Source: Bryopsis sp. KO-2023 (lineage: Eukaryota > Chlorophyta > Ulvophyceae > Bryopsidales > Bryopsidaceae). Taken from it: 64,000 bases of DNA. The notes beneath the pieces are model-generated. The model did not search any database and had not been told where the DNA came from. It worked only from the letters and a program-made list of their open reading frames with translations. Below are positions 17,195 through 59,486 of this stretch, piece by piece (position 1 is the stretch's first letter; every line of letters starts with the position of its first letter). The position numbers and the translations under genes were made by a program. The stretch spans positions 2,790,001-2,854,000 of the forward strand of contig BSYQ01000012.1 of NCBI GenBank assembly GCA_030272585.1, in the 5' to 3' direction.

Positions 17195-18754
17195 ATGTCG
17201 TCCACGATGGAAGACTCCGCCAAGAGGCTGTGCGCACCCGTGGTGGTGAGTCAAGCACTTTTTCCTTGTTTTTCATCGTGAAAAAGTGTGGGAAAGAACG
17301 CAGCAGCAAGCGATACGCGCCCAGTGTCTCAGAAGATTGCGGTCGGTGCGTTGACAAGTCGATTTTGATCCGTGTGGCACGCTTTTCGTGTGTGTAGCCA
17401 TTGATTTTTCTGATGATCAGGGTGTCTCTGTGTCAAGGGCAAATTCTTCCACACATCCAAGGTTGGTCATCATCGGCTTTCGCAATCGTTCTACGCCCCC
17501 AGTTTCAGTGACGACAGTGTGTCGCTGTGGGATGGGGTGCGCCAACCCAAACCAGCGTTATGGCGCTCGAACGAGGTTTTCCAGGATTCGCTGGAATGCG
17601 GTCTGGAAGAGAAAACCCTGGAGCTGGACGCCAAGTGTGCATACTTCGCGAAAAACATCGAAGAAGTCAGGGGGTCGCGCGTTTTCTTGTACATGACTTT
17701 CGCGGTCGTGAAATCCCTGGCCATCCGTGGACGTCACAATGCTGAAACGGCCTACTGCGACGTCGTGAGGAGTTTGATCGTGTGGTTGAACGATACGGAG
17801 GCGTCCAAAGAGAGCATCGAGGAGCTGTTCGGTTTGTTGGACGTGGGGCTGCTCACAGTGGATGAACTCGAATCGTTACGAAGTATGAAAGAGGTGCAAG
17901 CAAATTCCGCGATTGCATCCTGTGTTGTTCGCAATGTGGATCCCAAGCCAGCGGGGTCTAAGAAACGAGGGCGCGACGATGACGACTCTGGCCCGGCTCT
18001 CCTGGTGCTCGAAGGTGGGGTCTGGCACGAATGGAGCGTCCCAAACAGTGGCTGGTACGTGATCGCTGGGGAAGGGGGAAAGGGAGGTGACGACTCCTCC
18101 AGAGACAATGGCGGCCGCGGTGTGACGATCGGAGGCTCGTTTTGGCTGGGACACGGCGATCGACTGAAAGTCTTGGTCGGACGGAAGAAATCGAAATTGG
18201 TCAGAGGGGGTGGCGGCTGCTGCGTGGCGAAAATCACAGCAGGGATGAGTGATGGTGCACTGTTGCTTGCAGCTGGCGGGGGTGGGGAGTCCCACCAGGA
18301 GCACAATGGCCAGGATGCCGAGCTGTGCGATGATCTGGACAACTGCAAGCCTCTGCCGACGCACCCCATCAAAGGTCGCGCACATGATGGGAGGGGATGC
18401 GGTGTGTTTTTTGGGCTGAAAGCATCTGCGAGGGAGGAATTCTTGAACGGGCCTTGTGGATGGTGTGACGGTGGTAAGGTTACCAGCAAAAAAGGCGGCA
18501 GTGGGGGTGGGGGGTTCTATGGAGGAGCCGGAGGGTCTCGATCGAAAGGGGGTTCAGGAGGCACCAGCTTCATTGATCCTTCATCAGAAAATGCCTTCCA
18601 GATGAAAAACAACGGGCCGGAAGCTAGAGTTTGTGTGTGGAATGGTAGAGAGCCCAGGACGCTTCCTGATGCTGCTGATTCACAGCACAGCTCAGCGTCT
18701 ATTTTCGAACTGGGTGATGATTTGGACGAGGTCACCAGCCGTTTACGTACCTAG
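17195..18754 (+). CDS. Glycine-rich (ALK-type domain) protein with helical N-terminus
   Basis: Exon 1 is 17195-17245 (ends before GTGAGT). Exon 2 most simply starts at 17438 after a TCAAG acceptor and runs to TAG at 18754, giving about 455 residues. The first 200 residues are helical and could be BACK-like (for example NEVFQDSLECGLEEKTLELD). The C-terminal half is a glycine-rich domain of the type seen in the ALK/LTK ectodomain: EWSVPNSGWYVIAGEGG, then GHGDRLKVLVG, GGGGCCVAK, LLLAAGGGG and GGGGFYGGAGG. It is a paralogue, in that half, of the BTB protein at 52147-50889. No signal peptide is seen, so it is probably intracellular. The position of the first splice is the weakest part of the model. 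Confidence 0.65.
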
Positions 18755-20744: not shown

Positions 20745-23138
20745 TCATATCAACGTGAAATGGTTCTGTAGCTGCTTCAGCAGATCCTTCGAGTCAATAT
20801 GCTCTGGGTAAACCTCCAGCGCGCTGTTCACTTGTTCAAAACTTCCCTGAAATTCGCCTTTTCTGAAGCACAACAGGGCTCCATTGTAACACGGTTCGAA
20901 GAGATGACCAGCCAGTTTCTGGGCCATGGCAAATGAGGCTTTGGCGGCGGCGTCGTCTCCCTTTTTCCCTTCCAGGACCCCCAGATTATTGAACGACTCC
21001 GCGTGGGTGTTGTCAATGGATATCGCAACCTTGTATGCTTGATACGCCAGCCCCAGGTCTCCGATTCCAGTAGCAACCTGGCCTATGTTGTACCAGATGT
21101 CCGCCAATATATCGTCGCCGCCAAGCAGCAGAGCCCGATCGAAACAGTTCAACGTGAGGTCGTACTGCGAAGAGTAAAAGCAACAGAGGCCCAGGTTGTT
21201 CCAAATCTCGGCATTGTTCACCCCCATCTGCAGCAGCCGCCGGTAGAATCGCAGAGCTACTTCTGGCTGATCAGTGTAGAAATGGTGGGCTCCCAAGCAA
21301 GATATCGCCTCGACGTTGGACCCATCATAGCTCAGCACTTCTTTGTAGATAGGTATTGCGGTCTCCATATCATTCAAGGCGTCGTGCAGCCTGGCTTGTG
21401 CGAGAAGGATACTGATGTTGGCTGGATATTTGGCACGGTATTTCTTCAAGGTTTCCAGGGCGGTGTTGGGCTGATCAAGCCTGATGTACACCTTGCAAAG
21501 CTCCAGAAGCGCCACCACCATTTCCTGATTGTTGAGGGAGCTCTGGAATTGCTTTTCGGCGTCTCGAAACAAACCAAGCTGGTAGTAGCACTTCCCGAGT
21601 CTCGACTTCCACCACCAGTCGCCAAACTCTGTTCAGAAACGAAGAAACGAGTGAATACACCTCATTTCTCACCAAACTAGGCACCGAAAATAACTGCTGC
21701 TGGATGAACCTCTGGCAGTCGAAATGAAAACACGAATCTCCAGAGTGCGTTCAGATCACCACGATTTATTCAACCTTGCCTGTGCTTTTGGTTGCTAGAG
21801 CGCACAACTCGAGGGCTTTCTTCGGGTTATGATCGTGGTAAAGAATGTAGTCGCACAGCACCCGAGCTAGGTTTGGCCTGGCAGAGTACTTTCTCAAGTC
21901 CAATCGATCCACGTTTATAAACGGCCCACCGGGTTGGCTCAACAGCGATGCAGTCCCCAGCCTGACGAACCTGTCCAAACACCAACTTGATAATCAAAGA
22001 CCTCTCCCCGAGACCATACCAAAAGCAAAGACTAGACAGGAGCACTGTGTCGTTCAGAAGCTTGCCTTCCTGAAGATGTTACTGGTCTGGTTGTCCCAGG
22101 TCTTCCACCCTTGAGAACGGCCTCTACTGAAGCAGTGCCAGTCCTGGAGCCTGGGCGATTCGATGTGCCTGGGCGATTGCCCGTCCCAGGACGGACGAAC
22201 CCCGTAAGGGGTCGCCCACTGTTCGTCATCGGCCTCACGGCTTGACTCGGGGCACCCTGAAATTAAAACCATTTCAGAAGTGCTTCTCTGAGCCACGCCA
22301 GAATCACAGAATCCTTCTGGCCTCCATCTCAAATTCATTCACCAGGACCTCATAATGCACTTTCAGAACTCGATTCGGCAAGAAAGCAACGTTCGACGTC
22401 ATAACTGAGATGTCCTGCCCACTTCCTCCTATTGTTTGCGTCGAGTGATTCTCACCGATCCATTTGCTGAGGTTAGCGGCCTTGCTAACGACGTGCCTGG
22501 TCGAGCAACCTGAGCTATTGCATTCTCATCCAACAAAATGTCTGCAGCACCCTGAACATATATTCACAGCAAGAGTTTTGCTGAAAGAAAACTGCAGTGA
22601 ACCTTGCCAGCAACGAATAACACACCCAACAAATGACCAACTCATGGGGCGGTTTGCCTCGATGTAACACATTTGAAAAAAAAAAATGACCAACTCATTC
22701 AAACAGTTTCGGTGGAGTGTAGCAAATAAGAACAAGAGATGCCACCTCCTCTTCGATTTCAGTATCTTCAATCCAGTTCTTGAGCGTCAGGGCGCGGCAT
22801 TTCAGGTACCAAACTGCCTATCAACCATGAATGACATACAAGCATTGATCACAAAAGTGAAGTTGATGCTGAGCCTCCTGAAGCTGGTTTCTAGCCAAAA
22901 TATGGATGGTCTAGGTTTCCAAGAATCCTTCTGGCTCAAACTGTACGTACAAACATTCATGCATTGTGTTGAAAGTATGCAGGAAGCTGTCACCCCTCCA
23001 CACCTGATCGTATGGAGTTTTGGCGAGAACTTGTCCGCACAGTTCTATACTCTCATCAAATCGACGACGCCTCAGTCGGCTGTGGGCAAGCCACACGGGA
23101 TCCAAGTCATTGGCTGCCAGCGCCAGTGGTGCGGCCAT
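20745..23138 (-). CDS. TTC8: BBSome subunit TTC8/BBS8
   Basis: A TPR-repeat subunit of the BBSome, the coat that moves membrane proteins in and out of cilia. Six exons join without a phase conflict: 23138-23004, 22817-22746, 22551-22456, 22256-22066, 21970-21775 and 21626-20745, giving 523 residues (human about 540). Diagnostic stretches are AVWYLKCRALT, ILLDENAIAQVARPGTSL, a Gly/Arg/Pro-rich linker with RPLTGFVRPGT, RFVRLGTAS, DWWWKSRLGKCYYQLG, then TPRs with ALRFYRRLLQMG, WNNLGLCCFYSSQYDLTL, DIWYNIGQVA and HAESFNNLGVLE. The C-terminus LLKQLQNHFTLI matches the family's usual end. Intron 4 begins with GC (AAG|GCAAG), fixed by both phase and protein continuity. Intron 5 uses the second AG of an AGAG acceptor. 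It looks intact. Confidence 0.96.
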
Positions 23139-32835: not shown

Positions 32836-35800
32836 ATGTCTCGATTTTTTGGGGGGCTGATATGGGCAACGTTTATGCTGGCGGGAGCGTGTGACGCTCG
32901 ATCGGCGGGTGCGTTTCCAGCCCGATTTCAAAACTCCGGCGTATAGAAATTCTCTCCCGCTGGACGTATAGTTGATTCTTTAATCAGCCACCATCGAAAT
33001 TCTCTCCCGCTGGCCGTAAAGTTGATTCTTTAACCAGCCACCGTGGGTCGCCGCGAAAAGCTTACTTGGTCGAAATGGAGTGGAGATCGTGACGGGCGTC
33101 TGTTTTTTTGTATAGGTTTGTCTGATTCGAGCATAAGGGGAGGCTTATTTCGACGCAGTCTCCACGAGTCTAAAAACACCGCCAAATCGCAAACGTCCAT
33201 CTCGGTCGTGGTGGAGGAAGGGTCCGCTTCGGCCGCCGCGAAATCCTCTTCCCAGGTAACCACGCTGTAACTCCGAATTCGACCAATTTCACGACACAGC
33301 ATCGATCGAGCCAACCAGCCGCCGTATTGACTTGCGTCCGTTTATAACAGGGCTTTGCGCTGGAAGAAACTGGGATCGTGAACAGGGTGATCGAAGCTGT
33401 TTCCCGAGCGAAAGCTGGGGGAAACGTGACTGCCGAATCTGAGCTAGCCGCCAGCGCGATCGGCGACGCCGTGGCCACAGCGATAACCGAGTCGGAAGTT
33501 TTCGTCAACGTTACTGGAGATGGGTCCGCCAAGGCTGAATCGTCTGGAGGGGCCCAAGCTATCGCTTTCACAACCGCGAAATCGATTTTGCTGGGGGTGA
33601 CCGAAGCGTCGAACGACGATGGACTGGCCGTATCTCTGGTGAGGGGAATAAAGCATTCGGTTTCGTGCATTGGGGAGCGCAGACAGCCGCCGTTTTGAAC
33701 TGCTGAAAATGAGGGGGGGGGGTGTGGTTTCCAGGTGAACATGACCGCGCTTTCCGAAGAGATTGCGAAAGCCGTCGTGGACGTTTCTCTGAGCGTGAAT
33801 TCGACTGGTGGCCCGAAAAAGGACTTCAAACGAAGGGTCGCCATCGCTGCAGCGAAACCCATCGCAGAGATTATCACCGACGTCCTGGTGGCGATCAACA
33901 ATGGTGAGCGGGAGGATTCTTATTCCCCCATTAGGTGTCTTTCTGAATGAAAGATTTACTTTTTTCTTTGTCTCCATTTTTCTCTTTTTATTTCTTTTTC
34001 CTGTATGATAAAGCCTTCGTTGGATCGGTGAAGTGTGGCTGTTTCTCAGGTACTGCTCAAATCAGGAATGAATTCGAAGTGCAGAGCCATAAAGGCGACG
34101 TCCCGGTCGCAGAGACGTCGATTCGTGACGATCCTGCAATCGTCGTTTTCAAAATCGAAGACCCGGAAGAGGTATTTTCCCACCTAAGCCCCAAATCTTG
34201 ACTTTTTGGGGGCTTTTCCAGGATGAATTCCTCATGCAACCCGTCCAAAACCGTGTGCGTCTGTGTGTGTTTTTTCTTGGACTTAGAAAAGCAATGGACC
34301 CAGGTGCAATCCCTGAGACCGACATATGTTTTGCTACAGGTAGGTCAAAAAATCGAGGCTGCAGTTACGGAAGCGATCGGGGATGCGCTCAACAAAACGA
34401 GGCAAGACGGGGAGTCCAATTCCACCGAATCTGGGAAAGCTTTCGCCTTCGCGTTCGCTTTTGCAGGTGTTGGCGTTACCGTTTCGGGTGAGGGGTATGC
34501 TTCCAGCTCTGGATTTGGCAAGGCCCAAGAGATCGCGAACATCACTGCCAAGGCAATCGCGCTGGCGTTAGCTGGCGTCGCGAACAACGACACTGGATCG
34601 GTGGCAGAGGTGCGATCCCTGATCGTTTTGATCGTAACGCTCGTGTATGGACAGCGACCCCCGTAGTTTAGTTGTAACGCAAATAAACAGCATCCGAGGT
34701 TGAATTGGACGTTGATGTGGGGGGTTTCTAGGTGAAGGTAACGGTAATGGGTGACTCTGCAAATCACACCAGTGCTCAGCAAGAAACAGAAGCTGAAGCA
34801 TCCGTGGAGCCCGTCGCGCAAGTTGTGGCAAATGTGGTGTCGGCTGTTGAAAATGGTAATGCTGTCATTTAGCATAAGACATGCAAATGCATGCAACACG
34901 ATCATTTCTTGGCAACACAATATATACAGTCTATATCGAACTGCTGGGATGTCCTCTTGGATGAATAGCAGTGAACTGCAGGGAGCAATCTCTTGGGTGG
35001 ATGCATGCACTTGATTTCCACTCCACCAGAAGATGATGATGATTGCCCACAGAATTCACCCTAGCTAGCATACCAGATTTTGCATGGCTCCCGGCTGCTG
35101 TGTTCTTTCCTTGTTTTTTTTGGGGGAAAGGGGGAAGAGTGAAATGCATGGTTTGAGAAAAGCTGTGTATATATCGCCTCAGGTGTTGCTCGCTCAAGAA
35201 CGTCAGCCGGTGGGTCCGGATCATCGGAGTCCCCGCCACAGAGCTCTCCAACTGACAGAGAAGAAAAGGACCACAGGGCTGCCTCTTCAGATGCAATCAT
35301 TGCAGAAAACTACGATGATGAAAATCGAAACGATGCACCACAGGAAGAAGCTCCAACTGACATTGGTAGCGATCCTGAGAAACTCCCAACAGAAGGGTCG
35401 AATCAAAAGAGTGAGAATGAGGGGGCGAATCAGAAGAGTGAGAGTGAGGATTCAAATGGGAATGCGGTGCCAAGTCTTGAACAAGAGGAAAGCACCAGAA
35501 TCGATGACTCAACTCAGGACATCGTGCCAAGTGTTGAACAAGAGGAAGCCAATGTGGAGGAGAGCGTGGGCACTCCAGGCATTGTCGTGATTGCAGGTCC
35601 AACCATTGCAGAAGGGTTTTCTGGGAACAGAAGCGTAAATCAAGATTTTGCTCCAAACCTTGGCATTGGGGATCAGGATCGAATCCCCAGCTCTGGAAGT
35701 CCAGATGCTGAAGGGGAGGCTGCCATTCAAACTGAGGCAGAAAACACAGCAGCCGCAAAATCAAGTGCTGTGGGTGAACAAATTGACATCGGTGCTGAGC

Positions 35801-40522: not shown

Positions 40523-43500
40523 ATGGGTATTCGAGATCTGGGTATTGCATTGGGCGTTGCGTTCGGCCTGCTCCTGGTGTGCGCCACCTCAGGTAGAACT
40601 GGAATAACACAACAATCTACCAGACGCTGCGAATTTCACGGATACAGGAGCGGCAAGCAAGGGTCTATGACGCACTAATATGTGGGCATATGGCCGCGCA
40701 CCTCCGCGCGAAGGGCGATTCGCGTACGGTGTCCACGCGCGAAAGGTTGGCGCACCTTTCTGGATGCGTTACTTTGAGCAGGGTCTTGTGGGCGTGGCTC
40801 CGTTCGAACGGCACTTTTCTCCAGATCAGGAAAAGCTTCGGTTTAGTGTCCCCGGTCCAATAGACTGATCGCGGTTAGATCGGTGGTACCAAACTGAAAC
40901 TCTAGGTTGAACGAACCTCCACCCTTGAGCAGGGGCGGCCTGTGACGCGCGCTGAGCTTAGCCGTGCACTTTCTCTTTCCTTTACTTGCGCAGTGCTTTT
41001 TCAATCGTAGTGCGCGAACCATTCTTGCCACTGCTGACAGAAAGTGTCGCTTGTTTCTTGCCGCTTTTTGACTGTGACTGCTTTAGCTTTGAATCATGAA
41101 TATTTGTGTTCTTGCTTTTGAATCCACTTAGCTTTTCGCTCTGTCACGTGATATATGGAAACTCACACCGCCCTTCGACTGTTCCGTCTGACATAGTGTA
41201 TATTGCGCAGGTGCGCCCGAGGTAAGGTGCGACTTCTTTAAGACGTCTGGAGGATTCCTTCGAGCCAGCGGCGGTGCTTCTGGTAACCTGAGATGTGGAC
41301 AGTGGCCATCCTTCGAAGCAGCGAAACAGGAATGCTGGACGAACCGTGAGTGCGATGGTATGTCGTGGGGTCGATGGGGCAAAGGAACCGGAGGATGCCT
41401 GAAGAAGAACAGGGATGGTGGTTTTAAGCGCTCGAAGAGGTTCTCTGGTTTCCACAAGACGACTATGGGTTGCTGCAGCGGAGATCATTTCGAGCCCGGT
41501 CAGTGCAAACCCCGGCAGGAGGCGTTGGTATCTCTCCACAAGCCGGCTAAACAGTCATCTACAGCTTACGGCGGTGATGCCGGGAGGGCAGTGGACGGGA
41601 ACGTTAATACCAATTTTGGCTCCAGGTCGTGCACACACACCAAGAGCACGAAGAGTCCTTGGTGGCAGGTGGATTTGGGCAAGTCCTTCAAGATCACGAG
41701 GATAGTCATCACCAACCGGGGAGATTGTTGCTGGAAGCGACTGACGGGCTTCAACCTGTACGTCGGTGACAAGCAGCCATTCACCTCAAATCCTACCTGT
41801 GTCACCAATGGGAAGCAAGGAAAGGGCGAGGCAAGGGAATGGCATTGTCCTCTCACTGGAAGATTTGTTACCATTAGTCTGAAGGGCTCTGGATACCTCA
41901 CACTCTGCGAGGTCCAGGTATTTGCATCTGTAACTGACGGAGGGTCAGCAGGCCCCTCATTCACACCTGGCGGATCTGGAAGCCCTACCTCGATCGGTGG
42001 ATCCGGTGGTGTTGAGGTGCCATACCCTGGTGGTGGGTCCCCACTCCCTGTCACGACCCCAAGCCCCAGTTCAGTTGAGATTCCAGTGGCTGTTGAGCCA
42101 CCAGTGCATGCTGAGCCGACACTGTCTGGAATCCCTTTCACAGAGCCTCTTGCGGAAGACGAGCGAGAGGATATCATCTCCTTTGGCAAGAATGCTAGAC
42201 AATCCTCTACTTCCTACGATGGAGTCGCTTCGAGAGGAAATGATGGCGATCAGAACAGTGTGTGGGGTATGAACTCCTGTACTGCAACCACTAATGAGAA
42301 GACCCCTTGGTGGGAGGTTGATTTGGGACAAAGTTATCAGGTTACCAAGGTGGTGATCACCAACAGGGGTGACTGCTGTTGGGACAGATTGGATTCGATG
42401 GAGATATCCGTGGGAGACCAACAGCCCTACTCCATGAATCCCTCATGCGTGACTGGGGCGTCACAGGGCCAAGGAGAGACAGTGGCGTGGGATTGTGCCC
42501 TTGTGGGGCAGTATGTCACTGTGAGTCTCCAGACCACAACTATCCTGACCCTTTGTGAGGTCCAAGTTTATGGGGTTGTCACCACTGACCCTCCTGCAGA
42601 CTTTCTGGTATCCCCCGGCAAAAATGTGAGGCAATCCTCCACTTCCTACGGAGGAGTTGCACAGAGGGGAAATGATGGCAATATCAACAGCCAATGGTCT
42701 GGAGGCAGTTGTACCGCCACAAACTCGGAGAATACTCCATGGTGGGAGATTGACTTGGGTGAAACCTACGAATTGACTAAAGTGAAGGTCACTAACCGTG
42801 GGGACGTTTTTTTCAGCCGCCTGTCCAAAATGAAAATCAGTGTGGGTGACAACCAACCCTACACCCTCAATTCTGCGTGCGTGACCAATGCTCAAGTGCC
42901 AGAAGGTGCTACCATGGAATGGAACTGCCCATTGATCGGGAGATACCTGACCATCAGTCTTGACCAGACCAATATACTTACCCTTTGCGAGGTGCAAGTA
43001 TATGCATTGAAGAAATCAGGAGAGTCTCCTGCATCTGCATCAATCCCTGCTTCTATTGGATCTGGTGGTGGACCAGCAGCCGTGAATGAAACTACTACCG
43101 AGCCCACCCAGCCAGTGTCTGAGGCTTCGCCAGAACCTGAACCATTTGCCGTGCCATCACCAGAATCTGAACCAGTTGCTGTGCCTTCACCAGAACCTGA
43201 ACCAGTGGCCGTGTCTCCGCCAGTCCCACATCCTGCTATCGGTGGGACCCGTGAGGATATTGTGTCATTTGGCAAGAATGTCAGGCAATCCACCACTGCC
43301 TTCGGAGGAGTTGCACAGAGGGGAAATGATGGCAATCAGAACAGTGTGTGGGGTATGAACTCCTGCACTCACACTTCCTTCATGAAGAACCCCTGGTGGG
43401 AGGTTGATTTGGGAAGGACCTATAAGGTTACCAAGGTGGTGGTCACCAACAGGGGCGACTGCTGCTGGGACAGATTGAAGTTTATGGAGATTTCTGTGGG

Positions 43501-46075
43501 GGACAAGCAACCCTACACCTTCAACCCCTCATGTGTAACTGGAGGTGAAGAGGGCAGGGGAGAGGCAAAATCATGGAAATGCGCCCTGACGGGAAGGTAT
43601 GTCACTGTGAGCCTCCATGCCACCAACTACCTGACTCTTTGCGAGGTCCAGGTTTATGCCTTGGTGAACACTCCTCCTCCCGCCGACATGCTGGTGTCCC
43701 CTGGCAAGAATGTGATCCAGTCTTCCACTGCATTCGGTGGAGTGGCACAGCGCGGAATAGATGGCAAAATCAACAGCCAATGGACTGAGGGTAGCTGTAC
43801 CCACACCACTTTGATGAGCCATCCATACTGGCAGGTTGACTTGGGCAAAATCTTCCAAGTCACCAGAGTCAAGATCACGAATCGTGGGGACTGCTGCTGG
43901 GATCGTCTGTCCAAGATGAAGATCAGTGTTGGAAACAAGCAACCCTACTCCCTGAATCCCGCCTGTGTTGTGAATGGTGCTCAAGTGCGAGGAGAGACCA
44001 AGGACTGGGAATGTCAAATGAAGGGACGATATGTGACCATCAGTTTGGAGAAGACAGACTACTTGACGCTTTGCGAGGTGCAGGTCTTTGCGTTGCGCAC
44101 ACAAGTCCAGCCTCCGACTCCTCCTCCACCCGGTGGTCTGCTCGTGGAGACATTGTTGTCGAACAAGAAGCACTGCCGCCAGTCCTCCACAGGATATGGT
44201 GGTGTGTGTGGCAGGGCTGTTGATGGGAACAGAAACAGTGTCTATGGGGCTGGCTCTTGCACTCACACCTCTTTGATGGTAAAACCATGGTGGGAAGTGG
44301 ACTTGGGGCGGTCTTACAAATTGACCAAGGTGGTGATTACCAACCGAGGAGATTGTTGCTGGGATCGCCTGAACGGCATGAGAATCAGTGTGGGAGATAA
44401 ACAGCCTTATGGACTGAACCCCTCCTGTGTGACTGGTGGAAAACAAGGCAAGGGAGAAACTCGCAGCTGGAAGTGTACATTGAGCGGAAGATACGTGACC
44501 GTCAGTCTCGACAGCACAAACTTCCTCACATTGTGCGAGGTTCAGGTGTTTGGATTGGCAAAGGGCACCCAACCATCCCCACCCCCACCCACTCCAGGCA
44601 AGCTTCAGCTGGTGTCGAAGGGCAAGCCATGCAGACAAATCTCCACTGCCTTTGGAGGAGTGGCTGCCAGGGCTGTTGACGGGAACAAGAATGTGATCTG
44701 GGCAGGAAAGTCATGCACACACACCAATTTCGTCGCAAAACCATGGTGGGAGGTCGATCTGGGCAAATCATTCAACGTGGTGAAGGTGGTCATCACTAAC
44801 CGTGGAGACTGCTGCTGGGATCGACTGAAGAACTTCAAGATCTCAGTGGGTGACAAGCAGCCATATGGCCTCAACCCCGCGTGCGTCATCAACGGTGCAC
44901 AGGGTATGGGAGAAACCAAGGCATGGAAGTGCCCCCTGAAGGGACGATATGTGACTGTGAGCCTCCAGGGTAGCAACTACTTGACCCTTTGCGAGGTCCA
45001 GGTGTATGCTAATGTGCCAGGGCCAGTTCCACCCCCAAAGGATTTCCTTGTTTCCCTCAGAAAGACTGTGAGACAATCCTCCACCGCTTATGGAGGCATC
45101 GCACAGCGGGCCGTGGATGGGAATGCGAACAGCATATGGGCTGCGAAAACATGTACACACACAGGGCTTGCGCCCAAACCAGTCTGGTGGCAGGTCGATT
45201 TGGGCAAAGCATTCAAGCTGACCAGGGTGAAGATCACCAACCGTGGGGATTGCTGCTGGGACCGCTTGAGGGATTTCAGCATATCTGTGGGTGACACTCC
45301 AGCATATGCGGGGAGCCCACGATGTGTCAGCAGTGGCAGACAGGGTAGGGGTGAGACGAAGGAGTGGCCATGCAAGCTGAGCGGAAGATATGTGACAATC
45401 AGCATTCAACGAGCGGAATACCTGACCCTCTGTGAGGTGCAAGTGTTTGCCTCTGGTGCGGGTACTGGACCACCACCCGCTCCCATTCGCGAACAGTTGG
45501 TGTCATTCAAGAAGCCCACCAAGCAATCATCTGTTGGGTGGGGAGGAGTTCCAGCGAGGGCTGTGGATGGTAACAGGAACAGCGTCTACGGGGCTGGTTC
45601 ATGCACCCATACCACATTCATGGCTAAACCTTGGTGGCAGGTGGATCTGCTGAAGTCACTCCATGTGACCAGGGTGGTGATCACCAACAGGGGTGATTGC
45701 TGCTGGGACCGATTGAACTGGTTCAAGGTTCAAGTGGGGGAAGCCCCGGACGGAGGGGAGAACGACGTGTGCGTGCAGAAGGGTATCCAGGGACGCGGAG
45801 AGACCAAGTCGTGGAATTGCCCATTGAAGGGAAGATATGTAAGAGTCACCCTCCCAGGCACTCAGTACCTCACCCTCTGCGAGGTGCAAGTTTTCGCTAA
45901 TGTGCGGGTTGGAAACGATGGCCTTCGCCAAGAGCCAAAGATGCTGGCTTCCCCTGATGAGGTCGGCTCAGTAGAAAGCTCTGATGAGGTTGATTCAGTG
46001 GAGGACTCTGATGAGGGCACCTCGCCAGACGAGCTGGAGTCAAGTGTGGATACAGGCAGCAAGGAGGTGCTCTAA
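40523..46075 (+). CDS. Secreted protein with nine tandem fucolectin-type (FTP/F5-8C-like) domains
   Basis: Exon 1 (40523-40592) is a signal peptide ending at a phase-1 intron. Exon 2 (41211-46075) is one 4.9-kb exon; the protein is 1,644 residues. After a cysteine-containing, PAN-like N-terminal domain (about residues 25-125, with AAKQECWTNRECDGMSWG) come nine repeats at about residues 127, 342, 486, 704, 849, 1000, 1155, 1300 and 1451, each near 138 long. Each repeat has K..RQSST.(Y/F)GG, R(A/G).DGN.NS, SCTHT, PWW(E/Q)VDLG, ITNRGDCCWDRL, SVGD.QPY, GRYVTVSL and LTLCEVQV, as in eel fucolectin and tachylectin-4 relatives, where the His, Arg and double Cys form the fucose site. Proline/Glu linkers separate some repeats and the C-terminus is acidic. 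It probably cross-links or binds fucosylated glycans outside the cell. No membrane anchor is seen. Confidence 0.95.
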
Positions 46076-47812
46076 AGGTAAGCGTAGTATGAAATGGGAC
46101 ATGAGGATTGGTCAGAAAACACCCTACAGTGGATATGTTGATTTGTGGCAAAGATATGTCCATTGGGGAACAATTTCTTTGAGTGAGGCTGACCCTCATC
46201 CCATGGTGCTACAGGTGGATCTGGTATGTTTCTATGTCTTACAATGGAGGCGTTCATTCATCCTCTTCTGTGTTTGTGTCGTAGATTCGTGGAGTGGTGG
46301 TTAACACCATACGGACTAAGCAGCAATCAATTTGACAAGTTTTTTTTTGTTGTTGATGGAAGTGACGCTGGGAAAGTGTCAAATTTTGAATGGATGATAT
46401 ATATATATGGAAAGCATTGTAGATGAAGAGTAATTGCATTTAATTTAAAATGCCTCAGTTGCGTTGGATGTTTGTATGTGTCGATTTATCGTTCAGTGTT
46501 CCGTCTGAAACTGTTTGATATTTCAATCCCATTGATGGAAGAATCTTCACAAAACAGCACAAGCGATTTAACATTTCTCTTGAAACTGGTCAAACAGTGT
46601 GAAGCAACATCAAACACTTAACAAAGCTTTACCGTCTATTCACTTGCAAAAAAATTGTGTTTATCAGTCATTGGAACAAAATTCACTATCTTTCAAATTT
46701 TTTTTTAAACCTTATGGTGTATTTTGGCCTGTAAATACATTCTATTTGCTTGTTTAGGTAAATTTAATTCAATTCTGAGCCATATTTGTATTTTACCGAT
46801 TTCCTGACCACATTTGTAAATTTAAAGCTGATTAAATTTTAATCATCACTATCCCTCCGCCGCTATGCCGCACGGCACATCATTTGAAGCCCAGAGAAAT
46901 ATTTATGGTTGTGCGACTGTTTCTCAGGGATTTTTAGAGTCTTGATGGAACCAGTTTGGGAAGGTGAGAAAACTCGAAGATCCAACTGGGATGGACACAC
47001 TGCTCCACGATATGATAACCAACAGTCGACAGGGAAATGTCCACCCCCCCCCACCCCCCTCGCCGCATTGTGATAACTCCTTGAATACACAAACAGGTCA
47101 GCTAATCCAGACGCACATAGGCGATCGCTGAACACCAGGAGAGCCGCCGTTTTGATAAAGACGTCATGACGTCCAATATGTGACGTTTTTGGCGACCCAC
47201 TGTTGTGAGCGAAGTCCCGGATCGATCCCTGAACCAACACCCCCTGCAGGGACCTCTCTGCGACACACAAAACATGGGTCAACTCGCTCCCATACAGAAG
47301 ACATTCGGCTGAAAACGACACAAGCTTGGTGTCTTCTTTCGAGCGTGTCCAACATCGGTACGACCTTGGGCACGGCGCCAACAGGGATCACAGCACGTGC
47401 TGCGTGGAGTGCACCTCTTGGCCTTCAGCCGTCATGCCATCGTCAATTCATCTTTGCATATGAGGGTTGTCGAGGTTGAGTCAGCTCAGCTCAGTGCTGC
47501 AGTGATGGCAGCCCGAAGGCTCCAGTCGAACAAACCAGCAACAGCAAGACTCCAGATTCTCAGCCGTATTGCTACGTCGCTGTCATAACATCCTCACCGT
47601 GTGGGGACCAGACATTCCCCCCACCCCCAAAAAAGCCTGTCGCATGTTTATTTTTGTATGAAAACGCGAGGAGGGTGGCACGGAAGCCCAAAGCTTCGCC
47701 AAATCGGAAAACGTGCCCCTTCACCGACTCGATCGATCGATCCTCCACAGCAGCCCAAATAATTCGAACGGAATCCGTTCCACTTTTGTTGATTCTTGAA
47801 GCACCGCCGTTT
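46076..47812. other. AT-rich spacer, no gene seen
   Basis: Presumed 3' end of the lectin gene, then AT-rich DNA. A minus-strand frame at 47381-46863 was considered and not supported. The last few hundred bases probably include the promoter of the next gene. Confidence 0.45.
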
Positions 47813-50888: not shown

Positions 50889-52147
50889 TCAGTCCAAAAC
50901 TTCCCAACAGTGAATGAGCTCCTCATCGTTTTGGCTTTCCTCACCAGTATCCCCAACATGATTCTTGAAGAAGCTTTCTTCAGAAGGAACCTTTTTGCCC
51001 TTCCAAATAAAAACCTTGCCGTGACTATAGTTCCCTAACTTTTTCCAGCTGTTTTCAGCCTCAGGTGCAGCATAGCTGCCGCCACCCCCACCCCCACTGT
51101 ACTGATAACCAGCACTCCCACCAGAATAGCCAGCACCTCCACCACAAATATCTCCTCCTCCACCAAAACCTCCAGTATTGTCCAAGGCAGAACCTTTTGG
51201 CCGAGCCAGTGCTACGGGTCCTGCCTTCCATCCAAGACCACCCTTATGAGGTCCATTGTTTCCTCCATTCCCTCCGTTTTTTCCACCGATACATTTTGCA
51301 TCTGCACCGATTCCATCTTCACTCAAGCTGGCATCAGTACCAGAGGATCTGCTATTGATGCTGCCTCCACCCCCTGCCGCCAACAGCAAGGTCAGCTCCT
51401 TTTTTCTGAGAGCCACAAAGGTCCCTCCCCCACCACCGGTATGGTCATTGGGATACTTCGTACTAACCCACAACCTTGACTTTCCCCCCGTCAATATTTG
51501 GACAACATCACCAGCGTTGAATTCAAATGATCCGGCTATGATCGCCCCCTCCCCACCTTTCGACTTGTACAGCCGAGAATCAGGGCGTGCATCAGCAGCT
51601 TTTGCCCCCATGGCAACGATGTGATACCAGCCCGAGTCAGGGACCTTCCATTCCTGCCATTTTTCGTTCTCCTTGGAGTACTCAAAGGTCGCAACCGGGC
51701 CAGCTTTGTCTTCTTTCAAGTACTTCATGCAAGCCTTTTCCACCCAATCCATTTCGAACAATTTCGCGGCCAGCAGAACGCTCACAACATTATCGTCGTT
51801 CAAATCGCCATCCGCGGTGTAACACGACCTTAAAATCCACTTCAACGCAGCAGGATCCACGTCTTTCGCCGCCACGAATTTTTTCGAATCTCCGCCGCGA
51901 GAGAAGAGATTTTTGAAATATGGACTGGCGACTTCCAATACGAATTTCTCGCAATGAAACGTCTGGCCATCTTTGGCTTCGAAAACTACATCGCTCCGTT
52001 TCGGGTCGTCGAAGCATTTGGCCCAGTTTTGGTGATGGGCTGCGTAGTTCTCCACCAACACCTGTCGTTGAACGCACAATCAAACAATTGGCGGACAAGC
52101 ACTTTCAACGGACCAGCACTCGCAGCAGCACTCTTTTTTCTCACCAT
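50889..52147 (-). CDS. BTB/POZ protein with C-terminal glycine-rich ALK-type domain
   Basis: The coding part most simply starts at ATG 52147-52145, directly before a GTGAGA donor, and continues from 52061 to 50889 as one exon, giving about 391 residues. The N-terminal 110 residues form a BTB domain: SDVVFEAKDGQTFHCEKFVL, EVASPYFKNLFS, then ALKWILRSCYTAD and AAKLFEMDWVEKACMKYL. The C-terminal domain has WQEWKVPDSGWYHIVAMGA, GEGAIIAGSFEFNAGDVVQI, GGGGGTFVALRKKELTLLLA, AAGGGG and repeated glycine runs, ending GKVFIWKG. BTB domains usually dimerise or dock on Cullin-3; the glycine-rich domain otherwise occurs in the ALK/LTK ectodomain. No signal peptide is seen, so it is intracellular. It shares the glycine-rich half with the gene at 17195-18754. 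Confidence 0.85.
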
Positions 52148-53791: not shown

Positions 53792-54984
53792 CTAGTTGCA
53801 GAAGCACTCCTGATTTCTTTTGTTCTCGAAGATCATCTTGCCGTCCTCGGTCAGCTCCTCCTTCTTCACCCAGGGACCATCATCGCAGCCCTTACAACGG
53901 CACAAAGTCCTCTTGAAATCAGAAGCGCAACACTGTTCTTTGCCTTTTCCCGAGCAAGCGATGAGCTGACCGGCGCCGCCGCAGTCGTCCCCGCTCTTGA
54001 GAATTTTGCTTTTTGTTTGAGAAATGGAGCCGCTCCTGCAAAGACTCTCGGCGACCGCTGTGTCTCCATCTGAAGTCCGACATACGAACTCGTCAGACAA
54101 TTCATCAGATCCCTGCACAGGGGGAAGACTTTGACGAGAGAGTGGGGACTCACTGTCGCACGCATTGGTGGATGCTGCGGCGAACGCATTGGCGATGGTT
54201 TCGCTGACGGCCTTTACGTAGGAGCTCTCGAAGTCTTCTTTCGTCCCCGAGTCATTCACGCAGATGTCTGACTGCGCCGACGCTACCCCCTCGGCCAGCG
54301 CGACAGAAACGGAGCGGACATCGGCGTAGCAGAAGTCACTGGCGACATCGATGTTGTTGATATCACCCTCCAAAGCTTCGGCTTGAGCGAGGGATTCGGC
54401 CAAGTTGAATGCGAAGGTGTCACCACTGGAGATAGACCAGCCGCATGCGAACCCCTGGCCGTCGCACGTCACCTTGGCGGCCGCGTTCGACCAAACTTTG
54501 GCGATCGCGGTGGCCACTGCGGTGGCGGCGGCCTCGATCTTGCCATCCTCGCAAGCATTCTTTCTGTCGCCCCACCAGTCGGCGTATGCCTCCTTGAACT
54601 TGTTCTGAGAGCTAGTCACCACCTTCCGACCAAAGGAATAACACCAAAGTCGATTCGATTTTCTAACAAAAACGCCCAAGTGAAACGCAACGGAGATTTC
54701 GCAACAAAGATCACCTCGCAATCGGCGCCGGCTTCGCCATTGCAGTTATCAGCAGTCATTGAAATTTGCAGCGCAGCGAAACCATTACAGCTGGGATCGG
54801 GAGGTCCAGGGCAATCCACAGCGACGCCGCTTTCTGTGAGAAATCGAGCAGCCGAGAAGATCCGATCATTACGTTCAATCAGTGCGAAGTTGCTCCCTCC
54901 AGAGGGAGATCGGCCATAGTCCGCTAGCTACCCACCACACAGGAGCGCCACCAAAGCGATACAAAAACCCGACTTCTTAATCAT
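53792..54984 (-). CDS. Secreted alanine-rich protein with cysteine-rich C-terminus
   Basis: Three exons, 54984-54936, 54833-54715 and 54622-53792, join in phases 1 and 0 to give about 332 residues. Exon 1 is a signal peptide (MIKKSGFCIALVALLCG). Exon 2 is a small cysteine segment (DCPGPPDPSCNGFAALQIS). Exon 3 has alanine-rich units, helix-strand-helix, with EAAATAVATAIAKVWSNAAA, KVTCDGQGFACGWSISSGDT, FAFNLAESLAQA and AVSETIANAFAAASTNACD. The C-terminus holds closely spaced cysteines (DDCGGAGQLIACSGKGKEQC, then LCRCKGCDDG) and ends ECFCN. The alanine-rich units resemble exons 3-7 of the gene at 32836-38374, so both belong to one undescribed-looking family. It is extracellular by signal peptide; function is unknown. 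The gene is probably intact. Confidence 0.75.
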
Positions 54985-55415: not shown

Positions 55416-55903
55416 TGTAACCCCAAACCACGTCGCCTTAACCGATTTGGTCACCTCCACGGGAGGAGTGCTGCCACAGAACTGAGACTGTGGCAGCAGT
55501 GCAGTAATGATTGTGGTGAAGGAGCAGTCCTGCCACAGCAGGGTTTTTTATAATAATTTGTCAAGGTTTCTAAGGGCAGTTGGGTAGTAGTTAGACCGTC
55601 CATTTGTTAGGTTCAATAAGGGTTAGTAAGGGTTATTATAGGTCAAAGAGGTAGCTAGGTTGTAGCTGAAGTCCATTGGGGCTGAAGCTACAGTTTTTGT
55701 ATTTATAAAGCACCTCTGAACATATTCGATGTAAGCTCTCTTTTTGTTCGAGTGTTTGTCTTCTCCTATCCGACCTTTGCACACTACCACGTTCAACCAC
55801 GAGCCCTTAGGCTCTTTTCCGTTCTCCCCACGATCAGTCCCTCCGCAGGGGTGACCCAATAGGGAGAGACGACGTCATTTGTTGGTTTCGGAGCCAGGTT
55901 ACA
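55416..55903 (+). repeat. 5' LTR
   Basis: Direct repeat of the segment at 59482-59955, with terminal TGTAACC and GGTTACA. The stretch TGGTTTCGGAGCC near its inner end resembles a tRNA primer-binding site of the initiator-methionine type, so the exact inner boundary is uncertain. Confidence 0.85.
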
Positions 55904-57921
55904 GCGTTCTGGAGAACTTAAGTTTTCGTGGGAGACTACTCCAAAGACTACAAGGAAGAATGGCGGGGATACCATCACCATCTCTGGATAAGATATGTCG
56001 ATATGAGACTATCACTTCCAGAAATTTTCGGTATGCGTTTCAGCGCTCAAGGATCTACGCGACATATCAGCAGTTCTGCGCATCAGTGGTGGACCACTAT
56101 GTCCCAGAAGGACCCGGAGAGAATATTTTGGCAATACTGTACGAAGTTAACAATGTTCTGATGGCCGACTTCGACGCAGCGTATCCTCCAGGATCACACG
56201 GGAGGCCCGCAGCTTCTCCAGCAGCAGTGGCTGGAAATATTGATGCGTTAAAGATGAACGTGGCAGGATTTCTCGTAACGGAAAGAGCTATCTTGGAGAG
56301 TCCTTCAGAAAAGGAAGCAGTCCTTCGCAAATGTGTCAAGAAAAAGGGGCAAACGTGGCTGCAGTGGATCGAGCAGTTTCGCCAAGAAGCAATGGCAGTG
56401 GAACAGGATGTGGATGATGCGAAAATAAAAGAAATTTTCTTCAAACTACTTCCAAAGGATTGCAGAGTCGGAACGGCAGCAATGGTGACCGCCACATACG
56501 TAGACGCTATCGCAAACGCAAAGGAATGGATCATCAACGTGTTTCGCCTCGAAGATACAACAGCGAAACTCCAAGGGGACGCAATGGACATTGGAGCGGT
56601 AGGCGAGACTACAGCACCTGCAGAAAAGGAATCGCCGGTGAGACAAGGAGAACTTCCGCAGACCGATTGGCAACAAAAGCTGAAAGAGGTACCGTTTGGC
56701 TCTCTCAAGTTTTTCATCACTCAATTGAGTAAGAGAGATCGAAGATTCAAAGGGTTTTTGAGCTGGTTGGCAAAGAGCGGCGGCGGCGGAAGCGGAGGCA
56801 ACGGCGGATTCAGGAACAACGGAGGTGGATTCAGAAGAGGAGGAACGCCGTATCGTGGAATGCCTACGAGAACCGTTCAATTCGATGAACCCCAATTCGA
56901 AGACAACAACGAGTTTGAAGGATTGGAAGAAGAAGATCTCTATCAGCCCGAGACAAACTATGTCGGGACCATTTCTGCCGTGCCTGTGGCAAAAGTGCCG
57001 ACGAGGAAATGGAAGAAGTCCGAGAGAACCCAGTACCGCCGTGGGAACCCAACCAGTGGACCAAAGCAAACAAGGAGTTCCAAGAGTCCTGAAACCGGAG
57101 GGATTTTGAAGACCAAAACTTACAAGGAAGTTTTGACTGTGGGAAAATCAGCAGGACTCCTGACAACCAAGATGTCTCTCGTGTCTACAGCCGCAGAAAG
57201 TGTGGAAGAATTCGCTATTATCGACACGGGAGCAGCCGTCAATGTGATTTCCACGGATCTGGCAAAAAGATTGGGGGTGTCGCCAAAGCAAGAAGGAGCA
57301 CCCAGTAAAATTCGAACGGCTGATGGCAGGACTGTGGACACTGAAGGCAGCATTTCTTCCATCAAGATAGGAACCGAGGGGAAGAAGGTTTCCGCGGATT
57401 TTTACGTGATGAAGGAGCCCGGATACGAGCTGTTGGTCGGCATGCCTATTCTCAACTCGTTGAACGCCGTGATCGATGTTCGAAGGAAGAAGATCCACAT
57501 AGGATCTGGAAAAACTCTCCAATGCATGGTCACAAGATTGCCTGAGGAAGTAGTGCTTCCAGAAAGGGAGAAAACGGACGAAGAGAGTGTGGAGCTGACT
57601 TCTGCCAAACGACATCTCAAGATTGTCAACGTTGCAAAGGATCGCTATTCTGTACCTCTGGGGAGAAACTTGGTGCTCAAGCCGCATTCACTCTCCACGA
57701 TTTGGATACCGATCAAGACATCCAAGGAGATCGAGCTCAGTCCAGTCGTTCCGAATGGCAGTATCGCCATTCATGCAGGATTGAATTATAAGGGTCAGTA
57801 CCTCCGCGTCCAAATCAGCAATTGGAATGACCTGCCCGTCCAATTGCCGAGCAATTACAAGGTTGCGACTTTCGTGCACGAGGGACCCGTCAAGTTCAAT
57901 GACCGGGAGGTATCAAACTAG
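55879..57921 (+). CDS. gag-like region with aspartic protease
   Basis: A 680-codon frame of the retrotransposon. The first half is capsid-like, helical and without enzymatic motifs, followed by a glycine/arginine-rich stretch (about residues 300-335) that may bind RNA. The second half has the retropepsin-like signature IDTGAAVNVIS, with ELLVGMPIL further on. No CCHC zinc knuckle was seen. Confidence 0.8.
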   Translation: MLVSEPGYSVLENLSFRGRLLQRLQGRMAGIPSPSLDKICRYETITSRNFRYAFQRSRIYATYQQFCASVVDHYVPEGPGENILAILYEVNNVLMADFDAAYPPGSHGRPAASPAAVAGNIDALKMNVAGFLVTERAILESPSEKEAVLRKCVKKKGQTWLQWIEQFRQEAMAVEQDVDDAKIKEIFFKLLPKDCRVGTAAMVTATYVDAIANAKEWIINVFRLEDTTAKLQGDAMDIGAVGETTAPAEKESPVRQGELPQTDWQQKLKEVPFGSLKFFITQLSKRDRRFKGFLSWLAKSGGGGSGGNGGFRNNGGGFRRGGTPYRGMPTRTVQFDEPQFEDNNEFEGLEEEDLYQPETNYVGTISAVPVAKVPTRKWKKSERTQYRRGNPTSGPKQTRSSKSPETGGILKTKTYKEVLTVGKSAGLLTTKMSLVSTAAESVEEFAIIDTGAAVNVISTDLAKRLGVSPKQEGAPSKIRTADGRTVDTEGSISSIKIGTEGKKVSADFYVMKEPGYELLVGMPILNSLNAVIDVRRKKIHIGSGKTLQCMVTRLPEEVVLPEREKTDEESVELTSAKRHLKIVNVAKDRYSVPLGRNLVLKPHSLSTIWIPIKTSKEIELSPVVPNGSIAIHAGLNYKGQYLRVQISNWNDLPVQLPSNYKVATFVHEGPVKFNDREVSN

Positions 57922-57983
57922 AAAGGCCCGTCGAAAGGGGACTTCGGACGGGCCTAACTAGATCCGAACAAGACAAAGAAGCC

Positions 57984-59486
57984 ATGGCAGAAGCACTAAA
58001 GGATATGGTGAGGAAACACCCGGAGGTATTCGGCCCGATCATACCTCCGCAGCAAACGAAAATGGAGGAACTAGCGGTATCGATGGAGGAGTGCGGCTAT
58101 AGGAGAGAGCCGCCAAAGTCGAACGTCCCCCAAAGGAGCATCCAAGACCAGAGATTGTCCGAGGAACAAGTGAAGGAGTGGTTAAAGGAACAGGTGGAAC
58201 TCGGGTTCATAGAACCTTTGCAACGGAAGGACTATCCTCGCGGCGTATACTGGAATCCATCCCAGATAAGCTACTGCGAAAGGAGAAAGGGACCGAGGCC
58301 GATAATAGACTTCAGGAAGCTCAACACCTACGGCAGCGATGAGCACCAACCGGGCATTCAAGACGCAAGAAGACTGGTGCGATCTATCCCGGGCAAGTGG
58401 AAGTACTTCATCGTCGTGGACATAGCCAAGGCATACAATAAAGTGCCGATCAAGAAGGAGGTCAAGGCATTGACGGCGTTCAAAGTGGGGAGCAAAGAGT
58501 TTGTCAACAGCACCATTCCCCACGGCACTTCGTGGTCCGTGAGGGTATTCAACGACAAGATGTGCCGGGTATTCGAAGGTTTGGAGGAGTTCCGCCGCTA
58601 CATGGATGATCTGCTCATTGGCGGCGCTACTGTGGAGGAGTGCTTCCAGAACTTCGGTAGAATAGTTTCTCGATGCAAGGAATACGGACTTCAAATCAAC
58701 CAAAGGAAAATCGTCAGTGGAACTGAGGTGAAGTTTCTCGGATTCCACATTCAACAAGGAAAGTTTCATCCGGATATACCTTGGGAAAAAGTGAATGAAA
58801 CTATTGCTAAACTGGTTGGAACGGCGGAAATGAGGGAAATTCAGCAGCTCCGCGGTCTGCTGAACGCCTTCAAGAACTCGACTCTGGAATGGGACATGCA
58901 ACATTTGCTATCCAGGATGGAAGCCAATCAAGTACCGCCACAGGAGATAAAGGCGGAACTACAAAGTAAGGTATCGCAATGGCTGAGTCGTTGCTATTGC
59001 CGTGCATTTTCTGCCGGCGATACTCAACGGAAGTTGTTTGTTGATTGGGCTTCTATTGATACATCAGAGTATTTTGGATATATTTTGACAGATGGATCGG
59101 GGAGGATTTTATACCTCGGACACGGAAAAATAAGTGGACAACATTCAAGTTTCTTGGGGGAAGTATTGGCAGCTATGAGCGCCGTTAAGGAAATACCCAC
59201 AGATTTGTGGAGGGGAACTGCCGTTCAGATTTTTTCCGATAATTGGGCGGCAGTGAAAAGTCTATGGGCTCACCTCACCCAAGAGGGGAAAGAAGCAGCA
59301 CCTATTAAGGATTTGAGAACTTTGAGAGCGGTAACGGGAATCAAAGAAATTTTGCAGTTCAGCGGTTGTTCGAGTATCTCCGTACAACACATAGATGGGA
59401 AAGCCAATTTTGTGGCTGATCATTTGAGTAGATGGTATGAAATTCGGAGTACTTCACAGTGGAAACGAAGTGGGTTACAGCTGTAA
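57984..59486 (+). CDS. Reverse transcriptase-RNase H region
   Basis: A 500-codon frame of the retrotransposon. Reverse transcriptase motifs include PIIDFRKLN, VVDIAKAYNKVP, the active-site YMDDLLIGG and FLGFHIQQGKFHPD. RNase H motifs include LFVDWASID, SFLGEVLAAMSAV, IFSDNWAAVKSL and HIDGKANFVADHLSRW. The frame ends at the 3' LTR boundary. Confidence 0.9.
   Translation: MAEALKDMVRKHPEVFGPIIPPQQTKMEELAVSMEECGYRREPPKSNVPQRSIQDQRLSEEQVKEWLKEQVELGFIEPLQRKDYPRGVYWNPSQISYCERRKGPRPIIDFRKLNTYGSDEHQPGIQDARRLVRSIPGKWKYFIVVDIAKAYNKVPIKKEVKALTAFKVGSKEFVNSTIPHGTSWSVRVFNDKMCRVFEGLEEFRRYMDDLLIGGATVEECFQNFGRIVSRCKEYGLQINQRKIVSGTEVKFLGFHIQQGKFHPDIPWEKVNETIAKLVGTAEMREIQQLRGLLNAFKNSTLEWDMQHLLSRMEANQVPPQEIKAELQSKVSQWLSRCYCRAFSAGDTQRKLFVDWASIDTSEYFGYILTDGSGRILYLGHGKISGQHSSFLGEVLAAMSAVKEIPTDLWRGTAVQIFSDNWAAVKSLWAHLTQEGKEAAPIKDLRTLRAVTGIKEILQFSGCSSISVQHIDGKANFVADHLSRWYEIRSTSQWKRSGLQL

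What the first reader, a model, noticed from the sequence alone, without database searches (positions are those of the whole stretch)
40523..46075. Nine tandem FTP lectin domains in one secreted protein from a single 4.9-kb exon
Fucolectin-type domains usually occur in one or a few copies. Here nine copies of about 138 residues, eight with the conserved NRGDCC sugar-site motif, follow a signal peptide and a cysteine-containing N-terminal domain. It would be a highly multivalent fucose-binding protein, possibly for adhesion, prey or bacteria capture, or coat assembly. The huge single exon contrasts with the split neighbouring genes.
Basis: partly seen in the sequence, partly recalled or inferred. 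Interest (0 to 1): 0.75.

Follow-up and report, generated by a model that had tools for sequence, protein, structure and literature searches.

The report
Secreted nine-domain fucose-binding lectin chain
A gene of an unidentified eukaryote appears to encode a secreted protein carrying a chain of nine fucose-lectin modules, seven of which keep the full set of key sugar-site residues; it is a larger variant of a known lectin family rather than a new kind of system.

Summary
One open frame (41211-46075) follows a predicted signal-peptide exon (40523-40592), together 1644 residues, with nine F-type lectin (FTP, fucolectin) domains of 135-136 residues. Pfam PF22633 and PF00754 each match nine stretches; sequence and fold comparison give striped-bass FBP32 and eel agglutinin first. 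D2-D3 is a duplicate of the D4-D5 block, and the pair then changed partly in parallel. The N-terminal 8-Cys domain matches nothing in Pfam or PDB sequences. No membrane segment is indicated. Best reading: a soluble, multivalent fucose-binding agglutinin or matrix cross-linker; binding, ligand and role are inferred. The host is an intron-bearing eukaryote with a BBS8 gene nearby; I could not name it. Tandem F-type lectins are well known; the parts of a review that I read give up to five domains per chain, so this is a larger variant of a known kind.

The parts
40523..40592 (+). coding exon 1: predicted signal peptide (MGIRDLGIALGVAFGLLLVCATS...)
   Evidence: in-frame ATG; the 8 most hydrophobic windows of the protein all start at residues 1-8; GT donor at 40593; no transcript
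40593..41210 (+). 618-base phase-1 GT-AG intron (predicted)
   Evidence: GTAGAA...GCGCAG; joins the exons in frame
41211..46075 (+). coding exon 2, 4865 bases, holds the whole lectin array
   Evidence: open frame to the stop
41213..41524 (+). N-terminal domain with 8 cysteines, unclassified
   Evidence: 0 Pfam families and 0 PDB chains at E up to 10; model of low confidence
41525..41929 (+). F-type lectin domain D1, full triad
41930..42172 (+). 81-residue Gly/Ser/Pro-rich linker
42173..42577 (+). F-type lectin domain D2, NRGDCC kept, triad His replaced by Ala
42605..43009 (+). F-type lectin domain D3, triad His replaced by Ala and Cys-Cys by Val-Phe
43010..43258 (+). 83-residue Pro/Glu/Ser-rich linker with a 30-base tandem repeat
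43259..43663 (+). F-type lectin domain D4, full triad
43691..44095 (+). F-type lectin domain D5, full triad
44153..44557 (+). F-type lectin domain D6, full triad, two extra Cys
44609..45013 (+). F-type lectin domain D7, full triad, one extra Cys
45047..45454 (+). F-type lectin domain D8, full triad, one-residue insertion between His and Arg
45497..45901 (+). F-type lectin domain D9, full triad
45902..46075 (+). 57-residue acidic Ser-rich tail (17 Asp/Glu, 10 Ser) and stop codon
   Evidence: no Pfam family at E up to 0.5

Best explanation
The gene encodes a soluble, secreted F-type lectin that works as a long multivalent fucose binder. A signal peptide sends it out; an N-terminal Cys-rich domain precedes nine F-type lectin modules with kept calcium-site residues, strung on proline-rich linkers. 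Seven modules carry the canonical His-Arg-Arg pocket for alpha-L-fucose; two (D2, D3) carry a modified pocket without the His. Many sites on one flexible chain would give high avidity and cross-link fucose-bearing polymers or cells. I think the likeliest use is cross-linking of fucosylated glycans in the organism's own extracellular matrix or mucilage, followed by agglutination of microbes; the tools do not separate these. Shown: domain identity, kept residues, open frame, block duplication. Inferred: splicing, secretion, fucose binding, cross-linking, role.
For: Nine Pfam matches. The 6 PDB sequences matched at E up to 0.001 are all fucose-binding lectins or fucolectin-related modules: FBP32 3cqo, eel agglutinin 1k12, lectinolysin lectin domain (2 sequences), streptococcal fucolectin-related modules (2) (same 6 with the profile). 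The model of D6 (mean pLDDT 69.3, pTM 0.72) matches 3cqo (E 1.7e-10) and 1k12 (E 8.4e-10) best. Eel-agglutinin His52 is kept in 7 of 9; Arg79, Asp81 and Arg86 in 9 of 9; calcium-site Asp38 and the Cys-Glu of LTLCEVQV in 9 of 9; an aromatic at position 45 in 9 of 9. Signal peptide; 0 of 1596 windows after residue 30 reach a mean hydropathy of 1.6, the best is 1.15, so no membrane segment is indicated. dN/dS is 0.24 and 0.25 in the two least saturated pairs, which fits purifying selection. A distant bacterial relative (37% identity) is separated by one hypothetical gene from a GH95 glycoside hydrolase; that GH95 is a fucosidase family is recalled.
Against: No transcript, protein or binding data. 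Some site positions beyond the triad differ from eel agglutinin (position 46 is Tyr there and Gly, Ser, Thr or Ala here), so ligand preference may differ. 2 of 9 domains lack the His. The host, and so the presence of fucose in its own matrix, is unknown. The D6 model is poor in residues 1-32. Scans of viral and prokaryote contigs with the nine-domain alignment confirmed no relative, so no comparison with close relatives was possible.
Confidence: 0.72

Rival explanations
1. A gamete- or self-recognition lectin, like oyster sperm bindin: tandem F-type domains whose pockets diversify to recognise partner glycans.
For: Oyster bindins have one to five tandem F-type domains that diversified at the pocket, and some isoforms lack the basic triad (PMC5712786, passages). 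D2 and D3 have modified pockets and share four identical derived residues, more than a rough simulation expects (P about 0.0006).
Against: The other seven triads are kept, and dN/dS is well below 1 in the two pairs that are least saturated. No polymorphism data. The simulation is post hoc.
Confidence: 0.12
2. A defence or feeding lectin that agglutinates fucosylated microbes or prey.
For: Immune recognition is reported for some F-type lectins (PMC5712786, passages); the chain is predicted to be soluble and multivalent.
Against: Nothing among the neighbours that I scanned points to defence or feeding: a kinase, BBS8, a BTB protein and a retroelement.
Confidence: 0.3
3. A mainly structural matrix protein in which the repeats no longer bind sugar.
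For: Pro-rich linkers with one SPPPP motif, and an acidic Ser-rich tail; two domains lack the His.
Against: Seven complete triads are kept although 34 of 36 domain pairs have dS of 1.38 or more or are saturated.
Confidence: 0.12
4. An artefact: several genes or pseudogenes joined by chance or by assembly.
For: No transcript is available here and no genome of the source is held.
Against: 1627 open codons against at most 249 in 50 shuffles, one frame through all linkers, kept site residues, dN/dS below 1 in the two least saturated pairs.
Confidence: 0.03

Closest known systems
MsaFBP32 of striped bass (PDB 3cqo), two tandem F-type domains
   Same: best sequence and fold match; tandem domains; one of its domains has lost the Cys-Cys pair, as D3 has (PMC5712786 section 8)
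   Different: two domains, not nine; its lectin domains are split by introns (section 8), while here the whole array is in one open frame; its domain without Cys-Cys keeps the triad, D3 does not
Eel agglutinin AAA/AAL (PDB 1k12)
   Same: 41% identity in the fold alignment with the D6 model; same layout of His, 26 residues, then Arg-Gly-Asp-Cys-Cys-x-x-Arg
   Different: single domain; gains valence by forming trimers and hexamers (PMC5712786 section 13)
Oyster bindins and Xenopus pentraxin-fusion F-type lectins
   Same: tandem arrays; oyster domains diversify at the pocket (PMC5712786 passages)
   Different: up to five domains in the parts of the review that I read; sperm acrosomal or joined to a pentraxin; their sequences were not compared here
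Streptococcal fucolectin-related modules (2j1r, 2j22) and lectinolysin lectin domain (3le0)
   Same: sequence and fold matches; basic triad kept (PMC5712786 section 16 part 1)
   Different: bacterial, weaker matches, part of other proteins; three tandem domains in SP2159

Membership tests
F-type lectin (FTP, fucolectin) | significant match to the family profile and to solved members | tested here: met
   PF22633 and PF00754, nine stretches each (both profiles also cover other discoidin-like domains, recalled); 3cqo and 1k12 best in the PDB
F-type lectin (FTP, fucolectin) | jelly-roll F-type fold | tested here: met
   D6 model, pTM 0.72; first 11 Foldseek rows are F-type lectins, 3cqo and 1k12 top with TM 0.75 by query. 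1 of 9 domains was modelled from the alignment; its first 32 residues are of low confidence
F-type lectin (FTP, fucolectin) | basic triad His ... Arg-x-Asp-x4-Arg | tested here: met
   7 of 9 domains complete; D2 and D3 lack the His, so for these two it is not met. Spacing is 26 residues (27 in D8), as between His52 and Arg79 of eel agglutinin; the review prints HX24RXDX4(R/K), which would not fit that numbering
F-type lectin (FTP, fucolectin) | calcium motif h2-Asp-Gly-x | tested here: met
   Asp-Gly in 9 of 9; preceded by Ala-Val in D1, D6, D7, D8, D9 (5 of 9), by Gly-Asn or Gly-Ile in D2-D5, so the strict motif is met in part; x is Asn in 7 of 9, Asp in D2, Lys in D5
F-type lectin (FTP, fucolectin) | binds L-fucose | not testable with these tools
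   needs a binding assay
Oyster-type bindin | sperm acrosomal gamete-recognition F-type lectin | not testable with these tools
   no expression data, host unknown

The most novel reading that the evidence does not exclude
A lectin chain with two kinds of site: seven canonical fucose pockets as a general anchor plus a specialised two-domain module (D2-D3), born by block duplication and remodelled in parallel (His to Ala at the triad in both) to read a second sugar, with an unclassified 8-Cys domain and an odd cysteine that link chains together.
Probability: 0.15. Interest if true: 0.55.

Novelty: new variant of a known kind. Interest (0 to 1): 0.4.

Why it matters
If the chain is expressed as read, it holds more F-type lectin domains than the five that were the most I saw in the review parts I read. 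It also contains a natural experiment: a two-domain block was copied and in one copy both sugar sites lost the same residue. That makes it a test of how a multivalent lectin might gain a second specificity, and a possible source of a high-avidity fucose reagent. The N-terminal domain may belong to an undescribed domain family.

Tried and rejected
Relatives in viral contigs with the nine-domain alignment: 16 stretches matched a pattern, 0 confirmed. In genome contigs: 48 stretches, 0 confirmed. These patterns are strict, so distant F-type lectins there are not excluded. Phages by tblastn with D6: no match. Plasmids: 2 records, 37.4% and 36.6% identity. N-terminal domain: no Pfam or PDB match; the model of it with D1 is of low confidence (mean pLDDT 44.5), and its best Foldseek rows are F-type lectins, as D1 would give, so nothing is claimed from it. 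A second copy in the window: tblastn of the whole protein with 41101-46100 masked gave the gene's own signal exon (E 2e-9) and 2 weak matches (E 0.39 and 1.7); the N-terminal domain alone gave 7 weak matches, best E 0.087. Naming the host: not possible; tRNA and Rfam (gathering threshold) searches gave nothing and no genome is held. Recent gene conversion between D2 and D3: of six positions where they agree against D4 and D5 (columns 14, 38, 42, 44, 97, 125), 4 use different synonymous codons and 2 the same codon, so a recent conversion is unlikely and an old one is not excluded. One search lists a seventh such position, column 15, which I left out of the codon check. Faster change of D2 and D3: they have more unique changes than D4 and D5 in 10 of 10 outgroup comparisons, but only 2 of 10 exceed chi-square 3.84, and the outgroups are not independent; I do not rest on it.
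Full report
What is there. The long open frame at 41211-46075 (+) encodes nine tandem repeats of 135-136 residues. Pfam PF22633 (NedA-like galactose-binding domain) and PF00754 (F5/8 type C) each match nine stretches (E 2.1e-176 and 1.8e-120). Sequence search of the PDB with one repeat gives six distinct sequences at E up to 0.001, all fucose-binding lectins or fucolectin-related modules, striped-bass FBP32 (3cqo) and eel agglutinin (1k12) first; a profile of the nine gives the same six at E up to 0.0001. A model of D6 from the nine-row alignment (mean pLDDT 69.3, pTM 0.72; residues 1-32 below 50) has 3cqo and 1k12 as its best PDB matches, followed by the other F-type lectins and then by CBM32-type, galactose-oxidase and other discoidin-like domains (50 rows shown of 1222 at E up to 10). 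The repeats are 46-72% identical to each other in protein. The stop-free stretch is 1627 codons; the longest in 50 shuffles of the exon's bases is 249.

Gene model. An ATG at 40523 starts a hydrophobic signal peptide; the GT at 40593 and the AG at 41209-41210 bound a 618-base phase-1 intron that joins it in frame to the long exon, for 1644 residues. The eight most hydrophobic 19-residue windows start at residues 1-8; after residue 30 the best of 1596 windows has a mean of 1.15 and none reaches 1.6, so no membrane segment is indicated. There is no transcript evidence here.

Anatomy. After the signal peptide comes a domain with 8 cysteines that finds no Pfam family and no PDB chain at E up to 10. 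Then D1, an 81-residue Gly/Ser/Pro linker, D2, a 9-residue linker, D3, an 83-residue Pro/Glu/Ser linker, D4, a 9-residue linker, D5, and then D6-D9 after linkers of 19, 17, 11 and 14 residues rich in proline, ending in a 57-residue acidic tail (composition of the tail). The chain after the signal peptide has 63 cysteines, an odd number; four cysteines per domain are invariant (C36, C92, C108, C128); D6 has two more than the usual six and D7 one more. If the others pair, one cysteine is free and could link chains; this is inference.

Sugar and calcium sites. Numbered by eel agglutinin from the PDB alignment: His52 is kept in 7 of 9 domains and is Ala in D2 and D3; Arg79, Asp81 and Arg86 are kept in 9 of 9; Cys82-Cys83 in 8 of 9 (Val-Phe in D3); an aromatic stands at position 45 in 9 of 9; Asp38 in 9 of 9; Ser49 in 8 of 9 (Thr in D8); the Cys-Glu of LTLCEVQV in 9 of 9. 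Which residues bind the calcium, beyond what PMC5712786 section 8 says, is recalled, as is the role of position 45. The review (section 8; section 16 part 1) says that His52, Arg79 and Arg86 contact the fucose C4 hydroxyl, that departures from the motif may mean other specificities or loss of binding, that FBP32 has one domain without the Cys-Cys pair, and that viral F-type domains have Phe there, one of them with only Arg-Arg of the triad.

History. D2 groups with D4 and D3 with D5 (support 0.999 and 0.993 on DNA, 0.934 and 0.947 on protein), and the blocks holding D2-D3 and D4-D5 align at 74% identity over 853 columns. dS is 0.80 and 1.09 for these two pairs; the other 34 of 36 pairs are at 1.38 or more, or saturated. 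So the array is old and the D2-D3/D4-D5 duplication is the most recent one in it. Taking D6-D8 as a guide to the older state, D2 has 14 and D3 20 derived changes among 97 variable columns; six columns (14, 38, 84, 97, 105, 125) are hit in both, four of them (14, 38, 97, 125) with the same residue, including the triad His to Ala. Overlap in position alone has P 0.037; a rough simulation of 20,000 draws gives about 0.0006 for four or more identical changes. The control pair D4/D5 has 7 and 10 changes with one column in common, P 0.55. The test was devised after seeing the data. It fits parallel remodelling of the pair or an old gene conversion.

Surroundings. The window holds a tyrosine-kinase-like kinase domain split over two open stretches (6510-7160, 7400-7948; CTR1 the best solved match of the first), a 295-codon stretch of TTC8/BBS8 (20748-21632, minus; 149 of 294 aligned positions identical to chain 6vbu_8), a BTB protein with a glycine-rich domain, and a retroelement with aspartic protease and reverse transcriptase. 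I gave Pfam 18 stretches outside the lectin, picked from the open stretches, so the window is not fully annotated. No tRNA and no Rfam match. The source is thus an intron-bearing eukaryote with a BBSome gene; I could not name it. The SPPPP motif in one linker recalls algal wall proteins but shows nothing.

Mechanism. Most likely a soluble multivalent lectin whose seven canonical modules bind alpha-L-fucose and whose spacing on flexible linkers lets one chain bridge many glycans. Domain identity, residues and the open frame are shown; splicing, secretion, binding, cross-linking and role are inferred. A matrix or mucilage cross-linker and a microbe agglutinin are both open; gamete recognition is possible by analogy with oyster bindins.

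Known or new. F-type lectins and their tandem arrays are well known. The review gives one to five domains in oyster bindins and five beside a pentraxin in Xenopus (PMC5712786: 12 of 27 passages, sections 8 and 13 whole and part 1 of 2 of section 16). Rotifer lectins with three domains, the third not canonical, are reported in PMC8878817 (passages). I also saw passages of PMC6362431 (12 of 20 places; the one naming fucolectin was not among them), PMC11766507, PMC7778903 and PMC3500998, and otherwise only search listings. None of what I saw showed an array of nine. The main survey of the family (Bishnoi and others, cited in the review) is not held, so I do not claim that nine is a record or unreported.

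Noticed in passing
window 20748-21632 (-): Part of TTC8/BBS8 (to its C-terminal end) in one 295-codon open stretch, about half identical to the solved BBS8 chain 6vbu_8: the host has a BBSome gene.
   Followed up: partly
window 6510-7948 (+): Tyrosine-kinase-like kinase domain split over two open stretches; CTR1 is the best solved match of the first.
   Followed up: partly
window 17417-18751 (+) and 50892-52079 (-): Two stretches coding for a similar glycine-rich domain; the second matches BTB and ALK/LTK glycine-rich profiles, the first was compared by eye only.
   Followed up: no
window 55855-59483 (+): Retroelement with gag-type aspartic protease and reverse transcriptase in two overlapping frames.
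   Followed up: no
window 33348-34663 (+) and 53795-54745 (-): Open stretches rich in alanine (such as AFAFAFAFA) with no Pfam family at E up to 0.1.
   Followed up: no
window 46073-46084 (+): A donor-like AAAGGTAAGC directly at and after the lectin's stop codon, so an intron in the 3' untranslated region is possible.
   Followed up: no
L001 1019-3526: Persicobacter plasmid protein with a 37%-identical F-type domain; one hypothetical gene lies between it and a GH95 glycoside hydrolase.
   Followed up: partly
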